A DNA stretch of 64,000 nucleotides from contig NZ_AAMT01000016.1 in assembly GCF_000152805.1 (NCBI RefSeq), positions 1-64,000 of the forward strand, written 5' to 3'. The notes beneath the pieces were generated by a model that had not been told where the DNA came from, did not search any database, and saw only the letters and a program-made list of their open reading frames with translations. Of this stretch, positions 1,731 through 8,326 are shown piece after piece. Numbering within the stretch: position 1 is the first letter of the stretch; every line of letters begins with the position of its first letter. Made by a program: the position numbers and the translations under genes. Source of the stretch: Maritimibacter alkaliphilus HTCC2654. Its GTDB lineage: Bacteria; Pseudomonadota; Alphaproteobacteria; Rhodobacterales; Rhodobacteraceae.

Positions 1731-2912
1731 CTACACCGCGTCCTCTTCGAAGGCCCCCGGCACGAGTTCCTCCCAGAACGCCGCGATCCGGTCGGCGTTC
1801 AGCGCGCTCATCCAGCCGTGCCGCTCGAAATCGTCGCGCGCCGCACCGTCGAGCCGCGACAGGAACATGCGCTTGTCCGCATCCCGCTGCGTCGGCGTGC
1901 GCCCCTCGACCAAGGCCTTGATCCGGGCCAGCCGCCGTGCCCGCTCGCTCGACGGGGCCGGGGTCGCGGCCCCCTGCCCTTCTCCGCCGTAATCCGCCTT
2001 GAGCGCCGCCGACAGATACCGCACCGGGTCACGCACCCCGTCCTGCCCGGCGACGTAATCGACTTTGCGCGTCACATAGGCCTCGCCATGTTCCGCGATC
2101 CACTGGCGCGCCAGCCTGTCGCTCACCCCAAGGTCGCGCAACCGCCGATAGACCGGGCCGTTGCGGATGCCCTCGCCGTCGTCCAGATCGAGGATCGCGA
2201 GCTGCGGGTTCTCTTCGATCAGGAACCGGATGTCGGTGACCTGCCGCCCCATCTTCTTTACCTCCGGCGTGACGATGATGTTCGACGTCTTGTTCACCTC
2301 GGCCACCGCGGGCTTGATGATCTTCGCGTTCAGGTGCTTGTAGCTTTCGTAATACGCGCTGTCGGCCACCCCCATGAGCCGCCGGAACAGATCGAGCGAC
2401 CACCACCCGGTGCTCCCCGTCCGCACGAAGCGGTAACAGTTCTCATAAAGCGCCAGCGCGTGACCCGATGTGAAACGCCGCTGGATGTTCAGGTTGATAA
2501 GCGCAAAAACTTTCGGATCGTGCAGCTTCTCGGCCAGCGCGTCGGAATAGGCGTATTCGCAGATCCCGCCCTTGAGCTTGGCATAGGACAAAAGCGAGGA
2601 CACGCCCCACTCCTGCCGCCCCTGCTCATCCAGCATGTCCCATTCCGCCACCGTCTCGGCCAGCCCGCGCAGGCTGTCCTTGAGCGTGTCGAAATCGTTG
2701 GAATTGTAGCCGATCATCATGCACAGCGTGCGCGCGTCGATCTGGTGGCGGCGGCTGGTGGTCAGCGTGTCATAGGCGTTGAGCAGCAGCACATTGCTCA
2801 ATTTCCGCTGTAATAGAGTCAGTTTTCCCGACACGTGAATGGCCGCCACGTGTTTCTTCACGGCCCCGCGTCTAAGGGAACCGGTCAGCCGATCCCGCGC
2901 AATCTCGTCCAT
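1731..2912 (-). CDS. repB: Plasmid replication initiator, Rep_3 (RepB-type) family
   Basis: A 393-residue protein with the tandem winged-helix layout of Rep_3 initiators. WH1 spans about residues 25-165 (LTLLQRKLSNVLLLNAY opening, then the GYNSND segment). WH2 spans about 170-260 (WWSLDLFRRLMG, followed by an LNAKIIKPAVAEVN helix). The C-terminal third is basic and helical. These proteins bind iterons and open the origin. The gene is transcribed away from parA-parB, with an iteron-bearing gap between them, which is the layout of RepB-type plasmids of Rhodobacterales. It starts with ATG at 2912 behind a weak AGGTGA-like site. An inverted repeat that contains an iteron core lies 79-144 bases upstream and is a likely autoregulatory operator. 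Confidence 0.85.
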   Translation of the reverse strand: MDEIARDRLTGSLRRGAVKKHVAAIHVSGKLTLLQRKLSNVLLLNAYDTLTTSRRHQIDARTLCMMIGYNSNDFDTLKDSLRGLAETVAEWDMLDEQGRQEWGVSSLLSYAKLKGGICEYAYSDALAEKLHDPKVFALINLNIQRRFTSGHALALYENCYRFVRTGSTGWWSLDLFRRLMGVADSAYYESYKHLNAKIIKPAVAEVNKTSNIIVTPEVKKMGRQVTDIRFLIEENPQLAILDLDDGEGIRNGPVYRRLRDLGVSDRLARQWIAEHGEAYVTRKVDYVAGQDGVRDPVRYLSAALKADYGGEGQGAATPAPSSERARRLARIKALVEGRTPTQRDADKRMFLSRLDGAARDDFERHGWMSALNADRIAAFWEELVPGAFEEDAV

Positions 2913-3427: not shown

Positions 3428-4825
3428 ATGGCACCAAAATCTCCGGGCAAACAGGATCTCCCCCCCTACTTCAACATCGATCCGGGTTTCGCCGCGAAAC
3501 GTCTGGCCGATCCTATCGAGACGTCCCGATTCGCAAAAGCCGCCGCCTTCGCTATGCGCGGCCGCGACGACCTCGCCAAACGCGGCTATGCGCCCGACGG
3601 CAACAAACGGCTCCGCAAGTTCTCGATCTGGGAAATCACTCGCTACCTGATCCCCGTCGCCGCCGCCCATCTGCGGCGTGTGCTGAAGGCCAACCCCGAT
3701 CTCCCGCAGGGCGAGGGCGAAGCGGGGGCGAAGTGGTTCACGCTGGAAGAGGTGATGGAGATTCGCGACCACTTCGCCACCGAGGGCGCCTCCGGCAAAG
3801 CCTACAAATCGTGGCGGCCCGAGGGGCTTCCGGCCAAGGTCGTGGCAGTCGCGAATTTCAAAGGCGGCGTCGGCAAGACCTCGACCGCCGCCCATCTCGC
3901 GATGAGCGCGGCGCTCGACGGCTATAAGGTGCTCGTGATCGACCTCGACAGCCAGGGGTCGATGACCTCGATCCTCGGCGGCAAGGTCGAGGACGAATGG
4001 ATGACCGCCTTCCCCCTGATCGCGCGCGATTTCGCCAAGACCCTGACCGCCGAGAACGAGGTGCGCGAACGCTCCGGGCAGGCCCCCTACCCGTTCGACG
4101 AAAGCCTGACCGAGGCGATGCAGGTTTCGCCGCGAAACCTCGTCCAGAAGACGCACTGGCCCAACATCGACCTGATCGGCGCGCAGCTGAACCTTTACTG
4201 GGCCGAATTTCAGGTGCCCGTCTGGCGGATGCAGGTCCGGTCCTGGGCGCTGTGGGATGCGCTCCAGAACGCGCTGGAGGATGGGGGGCTGCTGGATGAA
4301 TACGACATCATCCTCCTCGATACGCCCCCTGCCCTCGGATACCTCACGATCAACGCGCTGGCCGCCGCCGACATTCTGCTCGTGCCTCTGGGGGCGTCGT
4401 TCCTCGAATTCGATTCGACGGGCCGGTTCTTCGACATGATCTATTCCACCTTCGCCTCGATCGAGGAGGGTGAGAACCGGGTCAGGCGGCGCGACAACCT
4501 GCCGGAAATGCAGTTCGAATGGGATGCCGTCCGGGCCATCATCACCCGGTTCGACGCCGGACAGCAGGCAGATCTGGCGAACGTGATCCAGGCCTATTTC
4601 GGCGACTTCATGACCGCCTACCGGCAGGAGCTGACCGCTATGGTCGGACAGGCGGGCGAGCAGGTATCGGGGATATACGAGACCGATTACCGCGACTTCA
4701 ACCGCGAGACCTATGTCCGTGGGCGCGAGACGTTCGACGGCACATGGGCCGAGGTCAAATCGCTGATCCTCGGGTCGTGGTGGCGCGATCAACAGATGGA
4801 AAACGCGGAAAGCGAGGAGGCGTGA
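3428..4825 (+). CDS. parA: ParA partition ATPase (type Ia, large form)
   Basis: A 465-residue Walker-type partition ATPase that moves plasmid copies by patterning on the nucleoid. The deviant Walker A motif KGGVGKT is at residues 145-151, the DSQGS switch near 174-178, and the LLDTPP Walker B region near 296-301. The roughly 135-residue N-terminal extension before the ATPase core marks the large type Ia ParA class, in which that part binds the operator and represses parAB. parB follows after three bases. Two parS-like palindromes lie inside the gene (3486-3500 and 4123-4139) and are read in different frames. Confidence 0.93.
   Translation: MAPKSPGKQDLPPYFNIDPGFAAKRLADPIETSRFAKAAAFAMRGRDDLAKRGYAPDGNKRLRKFSIWEITRYLIPVAAAHLRRVLKANPDLPQGEGEAGAKWFTLEEVMEIRDHFATEGASGKAYKSWRPEGLPAKVVAVANFKGGVGKTSTAAHLAMSAALDGYKVLVIDLDSQGSMTSILGGKVEDEWMTAFPLIARDFAKTLTAENEVRERSGQAPYPFDESLTEAMQVSPRNLVQKTHWPNIDLIGAQLNLYWAEFQVPVWRMQVRSWALWDALQNALEDGGLLDEYDIILLDTPPALGYLTINALAAADILLVPLGASFLEFDSTGRFFDMIYSTFASIEEGENRVRRRDNLPEMQFEWDAVRAIITRFDAGQQADLANVIQAYFGDFMTAYRQELTAMVGQAGEQVSGIYETDYRDFNRETYVRGRETFDGTWAEVKSLILGSWWRDQQMENAESEEA
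3485..3501. promoter_or_regulatory. parS-like palindrome 1 (inside parA 5' end)
   Basis: GTTTCGC-C-GCGAAAC at 3486-3500 is a perfect palindrome with a single central base. It matches the outer arms of the classical chromosomal parS (GTTTCACGTGAAAC). It encodes G-F-A-A-K of ParA in the reading frame ggt-ttc-gcc-gcg-aaa. The same sequence recurs at 4123 and 5911. The role as a ParB site is inferred from repetition and location. Confidence 0.55.
4123..4139. promoter_or_regulatory. parS-like palindrome 2 (middle of parA)
   Basis: GGTTTCGCCGCGAAACC is a perfect palindrome with 8-base arms around one central C. Here it is read as Q-V-S-P-R-N (cag-gtt-tcg-ccg-cga-aac), a different frame from the first copy. 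Protein constraint therefore cannot explain why the two DNA sequences agree. Confidence 0.55.
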
Positions 4826-4828
4826 TAG

Positions 4829-5908
4829 ATGGCCAAGCGACGTAAACTCGAAGCGCCGAGCGCCGATGATCTGACCCGGCTCGAAGCGGAGTTCCAGCGC
4901 GACACACCGCTCAAGGGGCCGATGTCGGCCCCCATCGCGCAAGTGGCCGCCGACACCGCACAGGCCGCCGATCTGCGCTCGACCGAGGAGCGGGCGGAGG
5001 CCGCGCGCAACCGGACCGATGCGGAGCGGCTGCGCGAGGCCGAGGAGGCGGGGCGGCTGATCGTGGAAATCCCGCTCGACGAGATCGACGAGATGGCCGT
5101 GATCCGCGACCGCATGTCGATGGATGCCGAGGAGTTGGAGGAACTCAAAAGGTCCATCGCATCGCATGGTCTGCGCCTGCCGATCGAAGTGTTCGAGCGG
5201 TCCGAGCCGGGCGGCGAAAAGCGGTATGGCCTGTTGTCGGGATACCGTCGGTTCATGGCCATGCGCAGCCTGCGGGAATTGTGGAGCGGGGACCGCTACG
5301 GCGCGATCCGGGCCGTCGTGCGCGACCCCGGCGCGATGGGCGGCACCTTCGTGGCGATGGTCGAAGAGAACGAGGTGCGCGCCGATCTGAGCCATTTCGA
5401 ACGCGGGCGCATTTCGGTGCTGGCCGCGCAGGAGGGCGCGTTCGTCAACACCGAGGCGGCGGTCGATGCGCTGTTCGCGACGGGGTCCAAGGCCAAGCGG
5501 TCCAAGATCCGGTCCTTCGCGCTGATCTTCGAGGAGTTGGGCGACATGCTCGTCTTTCCCGAAAGCCTGCGCGAAAAGGACGGTCTGAAACTCGCCTCGG
5601 CGCTTCGGTCCGGGGGTGAGGCGGCGCTGCGCGATGCGCTGGCGCAGGCGGCACCCGACACGCCGGAGGATGAGCTACAGGTGATCCTGTCGACCATCGA
5701 GGCGATGACCCCCGCAGCCGTCGATCCGTCGCGCGGCGGGCGGCCCAAGCGGAGCACGACGCGCAGCCGCACGACCGATGCCGGGGTGCGGGTCGAGGTC
5801 GAGCAGGACGGCTCCGACTGGGTGCTGCGGCTGTCGGGCGAGCGGGTCAACGGCGAGTTGATGCGCACCATCGCACAGGAGGTCGAGGGGCTACTGTCAC
5901 GCGCCTGA
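4829..5908 (+). CDS. parB: ParB partition protein
   Basis: A 359-residue centromere-binding protein. The ParB/Sulfiredoxin-like nuclease-fold region lies at about residues 70-185, beginning with the IPLDEID strand and including a LLSGYRRFMAM segment at the position of the usual GERRxRA nucleotide-binding motif. A helix-turn-helix region follows at about 190-260. A basic linker rich in Arg, Ser and Thr comes next, then a short C-terminal dimerisation part. The altered G-E-R-R box (SGYRR) may affect CTP use. It is translated just after parA (three-base gap). A parS-like palindrome begins two bases after its stop codon. Confidence 0.9.
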   Translation: MAKRRKLEAPSADDLTRLEAEFQRDTPLKGPMSAPIAQVAADTAQAADLRSTEERAEAARNRTDAERLREAEEAGRLIVEIPLDEIDEMAVIRDRMSMDAEELEELKRSIASHGLRLPIEVFERSEPGGEKRYGLLSGYRRFMAMRSLRELWSGDRYGAIRAVVRDPGAMGGTFVAMVEENEVRADLSHFERGRISVLAAQEGAFVNTEAAVDALFATGSKAKRSKIRSFALIFEELGDMLVFPESLREKDGLKLASALRSGGEAALRDALAQAAPDTPEDELQVILSTIEAMTPAAVDPSRGGRPKRSTTRSRTTDAGVRVEVEQDGSDWVLRLSGERVNGELMRTIAQEVEGLLSRA

Positions 5909-5910
5909 CA

Positions 5911-5927
5911 GGTTTCGCGGCGAAACC
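5911..5927. promoter_or_regulatory. parS-like palindrome 3 (just after parB)
   Basis: GGTTTCGCGGCGAAACC is a perfect palindrome with 8-base arms around one central G. It is the only one of the three copies outside a coding region, and lies where many plasmids keep their centromere, directly downstream of parB. It differs from copy 2 only in the central base. Confidence 0.6.
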
Positions 5928-5943
5928 AAAGGTTAACGAAGAG

Positions 5944-5967
5944 GGCCCGCATCGCGCGGGCCTTTTT
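5944..5967 (+). terminator. Rho-independent terminator of parAB
   Basis: GGCCCGC (5944-5950) pairs with GCGGGCC (5956-5962) around a five-base loop and is followed by TTTTT. It stands 36 bases after the parB stop and would end the parAB transcript. Confidence 0.8.
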
Positions 5968-6084
5968 GGTTTCTCAAACCTGCTGTCTGGGTGAGGGTCA
6001 CGAGGAAGCGGGCAATCCGGCAGGGTGGGGCGGTTTGGTCCCTATTTTGTGGAGAAAAGCGCCGCGCCGCTGTAGGCTCGACGC

Positions 6085-6969
6085 ATGAAAGCCAACCGGC
6101 CCGATCCCGACAAGGACACAGCCACCCTACCGCCCGTGGCGCGCTGTGTCACCCCCGCGCGTGCGGAAACCCCTGAGGATGTTGCGTTTCTGTCGGGCGC
6201 GGCGCTGGCGCAGCTTCATGTCGCGCTGGGTCATGCGGACCTGCCGCATGCCCTGCTGCGCGAGCGGCTGGCCCTTGGCGCGGCCGAGGCGTGCGTCGCC
6301 TTCGCCGGGCGGTCGGAGCGGGGGCCCGACCTGCGGGACGCGGTGCATCTGATGCGCCCCGGCGACCTGCCGGGACCGGCGGGCGAGACCTATGTGGCGT
6401 GGCGGCGAGCGGTCGAGCGGCCCGTGTCGGTCGCCGCGCTGCACCGTGCCCTGCCGGAGCAGTCCGGCGCGGCGATTGCGGCGTGGTTGGACGCGGGGCA
6501 GGGGGCGCCAATCCGGCGGGCCGCGCAAACGCTGGAGACGGTGCTGGAGTCCGTGCCGCGGGGCGAGGCCACCGCCCTGATCCTTGCCGATGCGGCGCTT
6601 GCGCGGGCGCTTGGCTGGGGTCATGCGGTGCCGCTTCTGGCGGCCGGGTTGAAGCGGGCCGATCTGCGAAAGACCGGGGCGGAAATACGGACGGCCTGTC
6701 ACCGCGCGGTGACCGTCACGGCCATCGACGCGGTGCGGAAGGCTGCCGATCTGACGCGGCGGGCCGCGCATCTGCGGGCGGTCGCGCCGAAGCTGCGGGC
6801 CAAGGGGGCAGGGGCGGCGGTCAACCTGTTCCTGACCCGCGATGCGGTGGCGGCTGCGGCTCTGCCGCTGCCGGATCGGGCGGCGCGGCGGTTGTGTGAC
6901 CGGCTGGTCGATCTGGGTGCGATCCGCGAGTTGACCGGGCGCGAGACGTTCCGGCTTTACGGGGTCTGA
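6085..6969 (+). CDS. DUF1403 family protein
   Basis: A 294-residue, mostly helical protein that fits the DUF1403 family by eye: an FLSGAALAQL start, then LRERLAL and LRDAVHLMRPGD blocks. The last 45 residues (LPLPDRAARRLCDRLVDLGAI, then TGRETFRLYG) look like a winged helix. It is followed after three bases by a ScpB-like gene and stands next to parAB. ScpB normally works with the kleisin ScpA and SMC. Kleisins also end in a winged helix, so this protein could be a plasmid-borne kleisin-like partner; that is inference only. No biochemical function is known to me. It starts with ATG behind no strong ribosome site. Confidence 0.75.
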   Translation: MKANRPDPDKDTATLPPVARCVTPARAETPEDVAFLSGAALAQLHVALGHADLPHALLRERLALGAAEACVAFAGRSERGPDLRDAVHLMRPGDLPGPAGETYVAWRRAVERPVSVAALHRALPEQSGAAIAAWLDAGQGAPIRRAAQTLETVLESVPRGEATALILADAALARALGWGHAVPLLAAGLKRADLRKTGAEIRTACHRAVTVTAIDAVRKAADLTRRAAHLRAVAPKLRAKGAGAAVNLFLTRDAVAAAALPLPDRAARRLCDRLVDLGAIRELTGRETFRLYGV

Positions 6970-6972
6970 GCG

Positions 6973-7566
6973 ATGGGCGGGGACGATCTGGATCGGGAGT
7001 TGTCGGACCTGTCGCCGGAGCTGCGCTGGCGGGACTGGATGGGCCGGGTGGAGGCGGTGCTGTTCGCCTCGGCCGCGCCCGTGGGGCGGGAGGATCTGGC
7101 GCGGGTGGTGGGGCAGGGGGTGTCGGTCGATCTGCTGATCGACGACCTTGCCGCAGACCTCGAGGGCCGGGCGTTCGAGGTGGTGCGGGTCGGCGAGGGA
7201 TGGATGCTGCGCACGCGCGTCGCCTATGCGCCTGCGATCCGGGCGGCGGCGGATGTGGGCGGTCAGTCGCTGGACCTCAGGGCCTTCGACGTGGCTGTGC
7301 TGGCCGCCATCGCCTATCACCAGCCGATCACGCGGGACGGGCTGGCGGAGATCTTCGGTCGCACCATCAGCCGCGAGTTGATCGGGCGGCTGCATGACCG
7401 TGGATTGATCGGGACAGGGCCGCGCAGCCCCCGGCGCGGCGCGCCCTATACCTTCGTCACCACGCAGGGCTTTCTTGCGGCGTTCGGGCTGGAAAGCCTT
7501 GCCGATCTGCCGGACCGGGAGATGTGGGAGGATGCGGGGCTGGGGTCCGGCGGGCGAGGCGCCTGA
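6973..7566 (+). CDS. ScpB-like segregation and condensation protein
   Basis: A 197-residue ScpB homologue with two predicted winged-helix repeats: about residues 20-95 (VEAVLFASAAPV, then LIDDLAADLEGRAFEVVRVGEGW) and about 105-180 (DVAVLAAIAYHQPITR, then ISRELIGRLHDRGLI). Chromosomal ScpB binds ScpA to complete the SMC condensin. Here the upstream partner is DUF1403 and no scpA or smc is visible. The tight coupling suggests the two proteins act together, probably in plasmid organisation or segregation. Confidence 0.8.
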   Translation: MGGDDLDRELSDLSPELRWRDWMGRVEAVLFASAAPVGREDLARVVGQGVSVDLLIDDLAADLEGRAFEVVRVGEGWMLRTRVAYAPAIRAAADVGGQSLDLRAFDVAVLAAIAYHQPITRDGLAEIFGRTISRELIGRLHDRGLIGTGPRSPRRGAPYTFVTTQGFLAAFGLESLADLPDREMWEDAGLGSGGRGA

Positions 7567-7660
7567 TATATTGATACGTTCGATGCAAGTGATCCAACCT
7601 GTCAATTTCACAAATACTCGGGTGGTGCCTACGGTTCGCGGCGAACAGGGAGGGGACAGC

Positions 7661-8326
7661 ATGACCTATACGCTTTATGCCGCGCCGGGGGCGTGCAGCC
7701 GGGTGCCGATGATGGCGCTGGAGGAGGCGGGGGCGGATTTCGACGTAGAGCTCGTGCGGTTCATGCGCGGCGCGCACCGTGCGCCCGATTTCCTCGCGCT
7801 CAATCCGGCGGGCAAGGTGCCGGTGCTGGTCACGCCGGATGGTCCGCTGACCGAAAACGTGGCGATCGCCACCTATCTGGCGGGTCGTCACCCCGGGCTT
7901 CTGCCCGATCTGTCGGACCCTTACGAGGCCGCGCGAATCACCGCGAACCTCGCCTATGTCTCGTCCACGCTGCATCCGATCGTGACCCGTATCCGGATGC
8001 CGATGTTCATGGCCGACGGGGACGCGGCGCAGGGGTCGGTGCGCGAAAAGGCGATGGAGATGATGCGGATGCATGCCACCACCGTCGATGCCGCCCTCGG
8101 CGCGGGGCCGTGGTGGTATGGCGACGACTGGTCGGTTCAGGACGCTTACGTCTATTGGGTCTGGTTCCGCATCACCGGGGCCGGATTTCCCGGTGAGGAT
8201 TATCCCGCCTGGGCCGCCCATGCCGCCCGGATGGAGGCCCGTGCCAGCGTGCAGCGCGCGCTCGCCCGCGATGCGCGGCTTCAGGCGATGCTGGAGAACG
8301 AGGGGCTGGCGGTGCCGATGCGCTAG
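7661..8326 (+). CDS. Glutathione S-transferase family protein
   Basis: A 221-residue protein with a thioredoxin-like N-terminal domain (YTLYAAPGACSRVP, with the P-G-A-C-S stretch typical of beta-class bacterial GSTs at residues 9-13). It has the NPAGKVPVL cis-proline segment, a TENVAIATYL glutathione-contact segment, and an all-helical C-terminal domain. ATG 7661 was chosen because GGGAGGGGAC sits just upstream and the GST fold begins there; an upstream in-frame extension overlaps scpB and has no GST similarity. The substrate is unknown. It converges on the next gene with a four-base overlap. Confidence 0.85.
   Translation: MTYTLYAAPGACSRVPMMALEEAGADFDVELVRFMRGAHRAPDFLALNPAGKVPVLVTPDGPLTENVAIATYLAGRHPGLLPDLSDPYEAARITANLAYVSSTLHPIVTRIRMPMFMADGDAAQGSVREKAMEMMRMHATTVDAALGAGPWWYGDDWSVQDAYVYWVWFRITGAGFPGEDYPAWAAHAARMEARASVQRALARDARLQAMLENEGLAVPMR

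What the first reader, a model, noticed from the sequence alone, without database searches (positions are those of the whole stretch)
6085..7566. DUF1403-ScpB pair beside a partition locus: possible plasmid condensin adaptor
ScpB normally needs ScpA and SMC. Here its tight partner is a DUF1403 protein ending in a winged-helix-like segment, as kleisins do, and no scpA or smc is nearby. The pair may recruit the host SMC to the plasmid or form an SMC-free segregation complex. I know of no described function for DUF1403.
Basis: inference. Interest (0 to 1): 0.6.

Follow-up and report, generated by a model that had tools for sequence, protein, structure and literature searches.

The report
Orphaned half of plasmid recombination cassette
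The two genes are real and nearly always travel together, but in relatives they sit beside a DNA-cutting-and-joining enzyme and its 29-letter target site, so they look like helper or control proteins of a plasmid recombination system that lost its enzyme here, not a plasmid condensin.

Summary
The pair is real: DUF1403 at 6085-6969, ScpB-like at 6973-7566. It is near-obligate: ScpB follows DUF1403 in 80 of 80 genome loci and 20 of 20 sampled plasmids.

The condensin reading is not supported. Folded alone, DUF1403 resembles Fic proteins (Z 17.1, 265 residues; the first 25 rows are Fic). It lacks the Fic motif (0 of 73) and shows no ScpA similarity.

The missing partner is a divergent tyrosine recombinase. 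Between it and DUF1403 lies an 11-7-11 dyad whose inner arms match the experimentally proven IntA att site of Rhizobium etli (PMC4928290). A second dyad lies exactly 19 bp from it in 73 of 73 loci. Plasmids switch partners at this site: 27 one-sided against 7 two-sided near-identical pairs; controls 0-4 against 15-29.

On this plasmid the recombinase and core site are gone. A recombinase remnant remains at 5975-6010; the second dyad and the pair are kept. Most likely the pair is the accessory/regulatory half of a plasmid site-specific recombination cassette, orphaned here. That it acts at the site is inferred, not shown.

The parts
6085..6969 (+). DUF1403 gene, 294 aa; Fic-like helical fold plus C-terminal winged helix (predicted); no Fic catalytic motif
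6973..7566 (+). ScpB-like gene, 197 aa, plasmid ScpB lineage
   Evidence: modest support
6028..6063 (+). Conserved element GGGCGGTT-N20-AAAGCGCC, 21 bp before the DUF1403 ATG; in relatives 19 bp from the recombination core; candidate operator/accessory site
   Evidence: 0 mismatches in window; 27 of 28 strongly conserved columns kept
6073..6078 (+). Conserved TAGGCT (TAGnnT in relatives) 6 bp before the ATG, possible -10 box of a leaderless promoter (read by eye; the sigma-70 scan found no promoter)
   Evidence: consensus; negative
5975..6010 (-). Remnant of the recombinase C-terminus (window RFLVTLTQTAGL against RFRVNLTKAAGL), best of 127,858 six-frame positions
5980..6008 (.). Place where the 29-bp core site should lie; it is absent here (7 of 25 strongly conserved columns match)
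4829..5908 (+). ParB (context)
3428..4825 (+). ParA (context)
1731..2912 (-). Rep3-type replication initiator (context)

Best explanation
DUF1403 and the ScpB-like protein are the accessory/regulatory half of a widespread alphaproteobacterial plasmid recombination cassette. The cassette is: an IntA/Xer-like tyrosine recombinase; a 29-bp core (11-7-11 dyad, ATGTCCGATAA-N7-TTATTGGACAT) in its upstream region; a second dyad exactly 19 bp further on; then, divergently, DUF1403-ScpB. Both proteins carry winged helices. I infer that one or both bind the second dyad, repress their own promoter, and together with recombinase on the phased core form a complex that controls recombination, most usefully by favouring resolution of plasmid multimers and cointegrates. 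Shown by tool results: gene association, sites, invariant phasing, natural exchange at the core, predicted Fic-like fold. Inferred: binding of the element, direction of control, role in resolution. In this window the recombinase and core were lost, leaving an orphan pair with its element; it may act on the complete cassettes of plasmids C2 and C3 in the same cell, or be decaying.
For: Recombinase divergent within 2.5 kb in 61 of 75 loci with more than 1.7 kb upstream (one of the 61, L127, is only an 85-residue match) and encoded nearby in 15 of 20 sampled plasmids (L044 only in part). Genome co-occurrence 34 of 40 DUF1403+ against 1 of 158 DUF1403-. Core with at most 3 arm mismatches in 74 of 79 loci and present in 18 of 20 plasmids from Rhodobacterales and Hyphomicrobiales. 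Inner arms identical to att of IntA, reported to recombine p42a with the symbiotic plasmid (PMC4928290, passages; sites located in p42a and p42d). Core-to-element spacing 19 bp in 73 of 73 loci, while the recombinase-to-core distance takes several values (20-21, 51-52, 335 bp in 29 of 31 matches that start at residue 1; the other two have 3.8-kb inserts). Exchange at the core: 27 one-sided against 7 two-sided pairs of 1,326; eleven control points 0-4 against 15-29. Distance matrices uncouple across the site (recombinase N-half/DUF1403 N-half r 0.29; DUF1403/ScpB 0.65; within-gene 0.73-0.74). Tni transposon genes sit just left of the core in 10 of 80 loci, as res-site-hunting transposons do at resolvase sites (PMC7765201, passages). 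Own genome: one core each on C2 and C3, none elsewhere with up to 2 mismatches. Recombinase remnant in the window.
Against: No experiment shows that DUF1403 or ScpB binds DNA or affects recombination. The element is kept in orphan pairs lacking the core (window, L091, L096, L097), which fits an operator as well as an accessory site. L103 and L117 have a decayed core although a recombinase match is nearby. The experimentally studied R. etli IntA works where I see no DUF1403-ScpB beside attA or attD, so the pair is not needed for recombination as such, and that integrase is only 27% identical to the Ti-plasmid recombinase. Orphan pairs stay intact with dN/dS well below 1 (window 0.24 and 0.19), so they may have a role of their own. 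Fic similarity is structural only. The exchange evidence is shuffling between plasmids, which a strict resolution-only system should suppress.
Confidence: 0.6

Rival explanations
1. The pair is only a transcriptional regulator: DUF1403 (with ScpB) binds the element, represses its own promoter and perhaps the divergent recombinase promoter, and takes no part in the synaptic complex.
For: Both proteins have winged-helix folds in the models; the element sits 21 bp before the ATG, over the likely promoter; the element is retained in orphans without core or recombinase.
Against: A mere operator does not need bp-exact spacing to the recombination core (73 of 73 at 19 bp), while the distance from core to recombinase gene takes several values. 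The sigma-70 promoter scan found no promoter.
Confidence: 0.24
2. The pair is an independent stability cassette carried as cargo on the right side of a mobile att site, swapped between plasmids by the recombinase but functionally separate.
For: Left and right flanks of the core shuffle independently; orphan pairs persist.
Against: Co-occurrence with the recombinase is almost as tight as with ScpB; the spacing is invariant across two orders; ScpB of orphan pairs shows raised dN/dS (4 orphans 0.109-0.186 against 18 picked loci with intact core 0.066-0.112, U-test p 0.004; DUF1403 p 0.39, not significant).
Confidence: 0.09
3. One reading: a kleisin-like DUF1403 with ScpB recruits host SMC to the plasmid or forms an SMC-free segregation complex.
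For: ScpB-family membership; obligate pairing; the host has one chromosomal ScpA-ScpB locus, so SMC recruitment is possible in principle.
Against: Fic-like fold; no ScpA similarity; the usual neighbour is a recombinase and its site, and this window's ParB adjacency looks secondary.
Confidence: 0.07

Closest known systems
IntA/attA-attD of Rhizobium etli CFN42 (PMC4928290; passages read)
   Same: Tyrosine recombinase near repABC; 8-7-8 att TCCGATAA-N7-TTATCGGA about 107 bp upstream of the recombinase gene; recombination between co-resident plasmids.
   Different: The p42a integrase is 27% identical to the Ti-plasmid member; no DUF1403-ScpB beside attA or attD and, by eye, no second dyad after attA (sequence).
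Recombinase plus toxin-antitoxin module downstream of repABC in Sinorhizobium meliloti pSmeLPU88b (PMC10194956; passages read)
   Same: The paper notes a Cre-like recombinase and TA genes downstream of repABC shared by rhizobial plasmids, and relates such enzymes to plasmid dimers.
   Different: The passages name no DUF1403, ScpB or site (0 occurrences of DUF, Scp, segregation and condensation); whether that recombinase belongs to the present family was not tested.
Xer/cer-type plasmid multimer resolution (recalled from general knowledge)
   Same: 11-bp arms with ATAA/TTAT inner ends around a short centre; one core on each of C2 and C3; a flanking element at fixed spacing where accessory proteins could act.
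   Different: Plasmid-encoded recombinase scoring far under XerC/XerD cut-offs (50.5 against 335 and 47.8 against 330 bits); 7-bp centre; accessory candidates are a Fic-fold protein and a ScpB paralogue, not ArgR/PepA.
SMC-ScpA-ScpB condensin
   Same: ScpB Pfam domain and ScpB structures among the matches of the model.
   Different: Separate plasmid ScpB lineage (modest support), no ScpA beside it; DUF1403 shows no ScpA similarity.
SoFic-type Fic proteins (3eqx, 3zcn, 3zec)
   Same: Helical core and C-terminal winged helix over 265 residues, Z 17.1.
   Different: No Fic Pfam match, no catalytic motif in 73 members, no sequence similarity to the one Fic protein compared or to any solved chain.

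Membership tests
Kleisin/ScpA | ScpA sequence profile (PF02616) | tested here: not met
   hmmscan up to E 10 gave only DUF1403 and HTH_13; hhalign with the host ScpA probability 0.1%
Kleisin/ScpA | Kleisin fold | tested here: inconclusive
   The first 25 structural rows are Fic proteins, Z 9.8-17.1; no kleisin listed, which does not exclude one
Kleisin/ScpA | ScpA-like interface with ScpB | tested here: inconclusive
   Read-through model pTM 0.58, no interface scores, C-terminal ScpB poorly predicted
Kleisin/ScpA | Binds SMC | not testable with these tools
   needs pull-down
ScpB | SMC_ScpB Pfam domain | tested here: met
   114.7 bits, cut-off 27.4
ScpB | NCBIfam equivalog TIGR00281 cut-off (bona fide SMC-Scp subunit) | tested here: not met
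   81.2 bits against 89.2
ScpB | Encoded beside scpA | tested here: not met
   the only ScpA match of the genome is on C4
Fic enzyme | Fic fold | tested here: met
   Z 17.1, rmsd 4.3, 265 aligned, a second look at Foldseek's own list; Foldseek probability 1.00, query TM 0.55-0.60, best E 1.4e-3 and none under 1e-3; predicted model, not experiment
Fic enzyme | Catalytic HxFx(D/E)GN motif / PF02661 | tested here: not met
   0 of 73 members; no PF02661 match
IntA/att recombination cassette | att dyad TCCGATAA-N7-TTATYGGA | tested here: not met
   window 0 matches with 2 mismatches allowed; present in 74 of 79 relatives and on C2, C3 of this genome
IntA/att recombination cassette | Adjacent tyrosine recombinase | tested here: not met
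   none on C6, only a C-terminal remnant; met in 61 of 75 relatives
IntA/att recombination cassette | Recombination at the site | tested here: inconclusive
   natural breakpoints at the core in relatives are indirect; no assay
Plasmid multimer resolution system | Converts multimers to monomers in vivo | not testable with these tools
   needs plasmid assay
Plasmid multimer resolution system (Xer type) | XerC/XerD recombinase | tested here: not met
   sub-threshold scores

The most novel reading that the evidence does not exclude
A condensin-derived ScpB paralogue and a catalytically dead Fic-fold winged-helix protein serve as the topological filter of a plasmid tyrosine recombinase: they assemble on a dyad phased 19 bp from the core and, possibly by touching host SMC-ScpA, let recombination proceed only within one DNA molecule, tying multimer resolution to chromosome segregation. 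Orphan pairs like this window's would be trans-acting regulators of co-resident plasmids' recombination.
Probability: 0.2. Interest if true: 0.85.

Novelty: new variant of a known kind. Interest (0 to 1): 0.6.

Why it matters
633 of 72,556 plasmid records carry a DUF1403 match, among them a Ti plasmid and other rhizobial and roseobacter plasmids, and no paper of the searched library names DUF1403. Placing it beside an IntA-like recombinase and a bp-exact composite site turns an unnamed domain into a directly testable hypothesis about how low-copy alphaproteobacterial plasmids resolve multimers and why they shuffle at one spot. If the ScpB paralogue works there, a condensin subunit has been recruited to site-specific recombination.

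Tried and rejected
Kleisin/condensin adaptor: rejected as the leading view on fold, profile and neighbourhood. No kleisin appears in the fold listings, which by itself excludes nothing.

Natural DUF1403-ScpB fusion through the in-frame TGA: rejected. The frame between the genes varies (16 of 80 loci in frame).

Viral origin: two scans of viral contigs found no relative (12 and 43 pattern matches, none confirmed).

Fic by sequence: no match; the claim rests on the predicted structure alone.

First flank comparison: its left-identity values of 1.00 came from free end gaps with short overlaps and were discarded; replace it. In one search, 8 of the 35 one-sided pairs involve L102 or L120, whose left flank holds a transposon end. 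One search dropped 12 loci (Tni genes at the core, or L113 and L117) and kept only loci with the recombinase match starting under 140 bp from the core (52 loci); the figure is 27 of 1,326. These pairs share loci (25 loci involved), so they are not independent events. Flanks beside the core are largely non-coding and diverge faster than the coding controls; one search uses coding sequence only and agrees.

Recombinase-to-core distance: the list counts from the start of the local match and so overstates its spread; one search gives the values for 31 matches starting at residue 1.

dN/dS: 22 loci of my choice, synonymous sites near saturation; the 18 'intact core' loci include L101, whose recombinase was not seen, and L122, whose ScpB segment shows one stop.

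ScpB tree: the plasmid group is one side of a branch with only 79/64 support, and three short chromosomal rows distort it.

Sigma-70 scan of 5800-7700 found no promoter; the TAGnnT box is by eye.

Transposon-end distances use a short end motif read by eye; target duplications were not tested. tniA lies on the recombinase side; I do not claim that the orientation matches Tn5053.

Literature searches for the module. Among the 12 papers listed of 13, none holds both ScpB and repABC. The library holds only open-licence papers, and the original IntA characterisation (J Bacteriol 2013) was seen only as a citation in PMC4928290. Passages of PMC9044938 and PMC13386836 (Sulfitobacter plasmids) name neither ScpB nor DUF.

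Full report
What is in the window. DUF1403 (6085-6969) and an ScpB-like gene (6973-7566) follow ParA-ParB on a Rep3-type plasmid contig of 93,578 bp (C6). The genome has two further pairs, on C2 and C3, and one chromosomal ScpB; the chromosomal ScpB lies beside the only ScpA match.

The pair is obligate. Of 198 genomes of the family, 40 hold DUF1403 at E 0.001 (37 above the cut-off); 35 of these 40 have an extra ScpB against 3 of the other 158. The five exceptions are below cut-off, broken or fragmentary matches. In 20 plasmid records that I picked from the 60 rows shown of 633, ScpB is encoded in 20 of 20; in L042 it is unannotated and shorter, beside an insertion sequence.

The missing neighbour. 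A tyrosine recombinase of about 370 aa lies divergently within 2.5 kb upstream in 61 of 75 loci with more than 1.7 kb upstream (in L127 only 85 residues match), and is encoded nearby in 15 of the 20 plasmids (in L044 only in part). Of the 14 loci without it, 7 have it 3.5-3.8 kb away behind an insert, four more have Tni genes at the core, and three (L091, L096, L097) lack it within the DNA held. In the 198 genomes a close recombinase (E 1e-60) occurs in 34 of 40 DUF1403 genomes and 1 of 158 others. On this genome it is beside the pairs of C2 and C3 and absent from C6. It matches Phage_integrase (PF00589) and scores far below the XerC/XerD cut-offs.

A composite site. Between recombinase and DUF1403 lies ATGTCCGATAA-N7-TTATTGGACAT, with at most 3 arm mismatches in 74 of 79 loci. 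Of the other five, L091, L096 and L097 also lack the recombinase, but L103 and L117 have a recombinase match nearby. In the 20 plasmids, from a Ti plasmid to Bradyrhizobium, Methylocystis and Paracoccus, 18 have the core; in 7 of them the arms are perfect dyads although the outer bases differ between plasmids, that is, both arms changed together. A second dyad, GGGCGGTT-N20-AAAGCGCC in Rhodobacterales (GTGCGGTT-N20-TAACCGCA-like in several rhizobia), starts 19 bp after the core in 73 of 73 genome loci and in 16 of 18 plasmids; in the other two the left half-site is, by eye, at the same distance. The recombinase side is less rigid: among 31 matches that start at residue 1 the distance is 20-21 bp in 18, 51-52 in 10, 335 in one and 3.8 kb in two. 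Invariant spacing on the DUF1403 side argues that whatever binds the second dyad touches the core complex.

The core is an att site. PMC4928290 (passages read) gives attA of R. etli as TCCGATAAGCATTACTTATCGGA, recombined by IntA, which fuses p42a with the symbiotic plasmid (integration 2.4e-5, excision 2.1e-6). I located such sites in p42a, about 107 bp from the integrase gene, and in p42d. That integrase is 27% identical to the Ti-plasmid recombinase, and no DUF1403 lies next to either R. etli site. So the pair is an addition to, not a requirement for, IntA-type recombination.

Recombination in nature. Among 52 loci with an intact left side, 1,326 pairs were compared for 100 bp on each side of the core: 27 pairs are at least 93% identical on one side and under 75% on the other, 7 are near-identical on both. 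At six control points in DUF1403 and five in the recombinase the figures are 0-4 one-sided and 15-29 two-sided (the first version with more loci gave 35 and 7 of 2,485). The printed alignments show identity ending inside or at the core. Protein distances agree: recombinase N-half with DUF1403 N-half r 0.29 (bootstrap 0.10-0.45), DUF1403 with ScpB 0.65 (0.46-0.75), halves of one gene 0.73-0.74 (63 loci).

Transposons mark the spot. Tni transposon genes (Mu-transpos_C, TniB and TniQ domains in the examples scanned) sit left of the core in 10 of 80 loci, tniQ being recognised in five of them; by a short end motif the element ends 27 bp from the core in six loci and 28-52 bp away in the others. 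Two of the 20 plasmids (L040, L177) show the same. Tn5053-family elements prefer res sites and use the target-site resolvase (PMC7765201, passages). The analogy supports an occupied recombination site here, though those targets belong to serine resolvases (recalled).

The proteins. DUF1403 folded alone (73 sequences) reached pLDDT 82.9 and pTM 0.81. Its first 25 structural rows are Fic proteins (Z 9.8-17.1; the next row has 7.4), the best covering 265 residues including the C-terminal winged helix. The catalytic motif is absent in 73 of 73, and no sequence similarity to one Fic protein or to any solved chain was found. The plasmid ScpBs of Rhodobacterales and rhizobia group together apart from chromosomal ones with modest support.

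What happened in this window. A C-terminal recombinase remnant lies at 5975-6010 on the minus strand, the best of 127,858 six-frame positions (score 24.2 against 18.2 for the next). It occupies the place of the missing core. The second dyad is perfect and 27 of 28 strongly conserved columns up to the ATG are kept, against 7 of 25 in the core. L091, L096 and L097 are similar orphans; L167 and L171 lack core and recombinase too. Orphan genes are intact; ScpB dN/dS is raised (0.109-0.186 in 4 orphans against 0.066-0.112 in 18 chosen loci with intact core, p 0.004) but DUF1403 dN/dS is not significantly so (p 0.39). Synonymous sites are near saturation, so these values are rough.

How it most likely works. 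The pair probably binds the second dyad, controls its own promoter, and cooperates with recombinase on the phased core so that recombination is regulated or directed; one core on each of C2 and C3 and none on the chromosome fit multimer or cointegrate resolution better than chromosomal integration. Association, sites, phasing, natural exchange and predicted fold are tool results; DNA binding, direction of control and any SMC contact are inference. The strongest counter-argument is that orphans keep the dyad without the core, so it is at least also an operator.

Novelty. Tyrosine recombinase/att plasmid systems are known, and a recombinase with toxin-antitoxin genes downstream of repABC has been noted in rhizobial plasmids and linked to plasmid dimers (PMC10194956, passages). 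The obligate Fic-fold plus ScpB pair and the 19-bp phased second dyad were not found in print in the searches. I rate it a new variant of a known kind.

Noticed in passing
L062, L068, L071, L081, L090, L101, L102, L106, L116, L120 (upstream of DUF1403); plasmid loci L040, L177: Tni transposon genes just left of the recombination core, six ends at 27 bp from it; possibly tyrosine-recombinase-site hunters analogous to Tn5053 res-site hunters.
   Followed up: partly
L053, L054, L055, L069, L086, L089, L092, L100, L105, L115, L045, about 2.3-5 kb after the DUF1403 start: A second, more distant group of TniA/TniB genes (29-46% identity) lies downstream of ScpB on the opposite strand, suggesting another insertion hot spot at the end of the cassette.
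   Followed up: no
L046:7706-8809, L048:3938-5149, L175:1304-2398, L177:6907-8001: Genuine Fic proteins are encoded near the DUF1403-ScpB pair on several plasmids (three checked by Pfam; L177 by annotation), notable given the Fic-like fold of DUF1403.
   Followed up: partly
L113:4409-7715: SIS/glutamine amidotransferase and phosphoglucomutase-type genes inserted between recombinase and core.
   Followed up: no
L126 and L128 (contig PCCY01000024.1): One 59-kb contig carries two cassette copies in the same orientation about 39.5 kb apart; an assembled plasmid multimer or an assembly overlap.
   Followed up: no
L009:1492-2460: A 323-aa protein with the same C-terminal winged helix (HTH_13 above cut-off, DUF1403 barely above) but little other similarity, perhaps a wider family of such regulators.
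   Followed up: partly
G399, G428, G567: Three genomes carry a second ScpB without DUF1403; context not examined.
   Followed up: no
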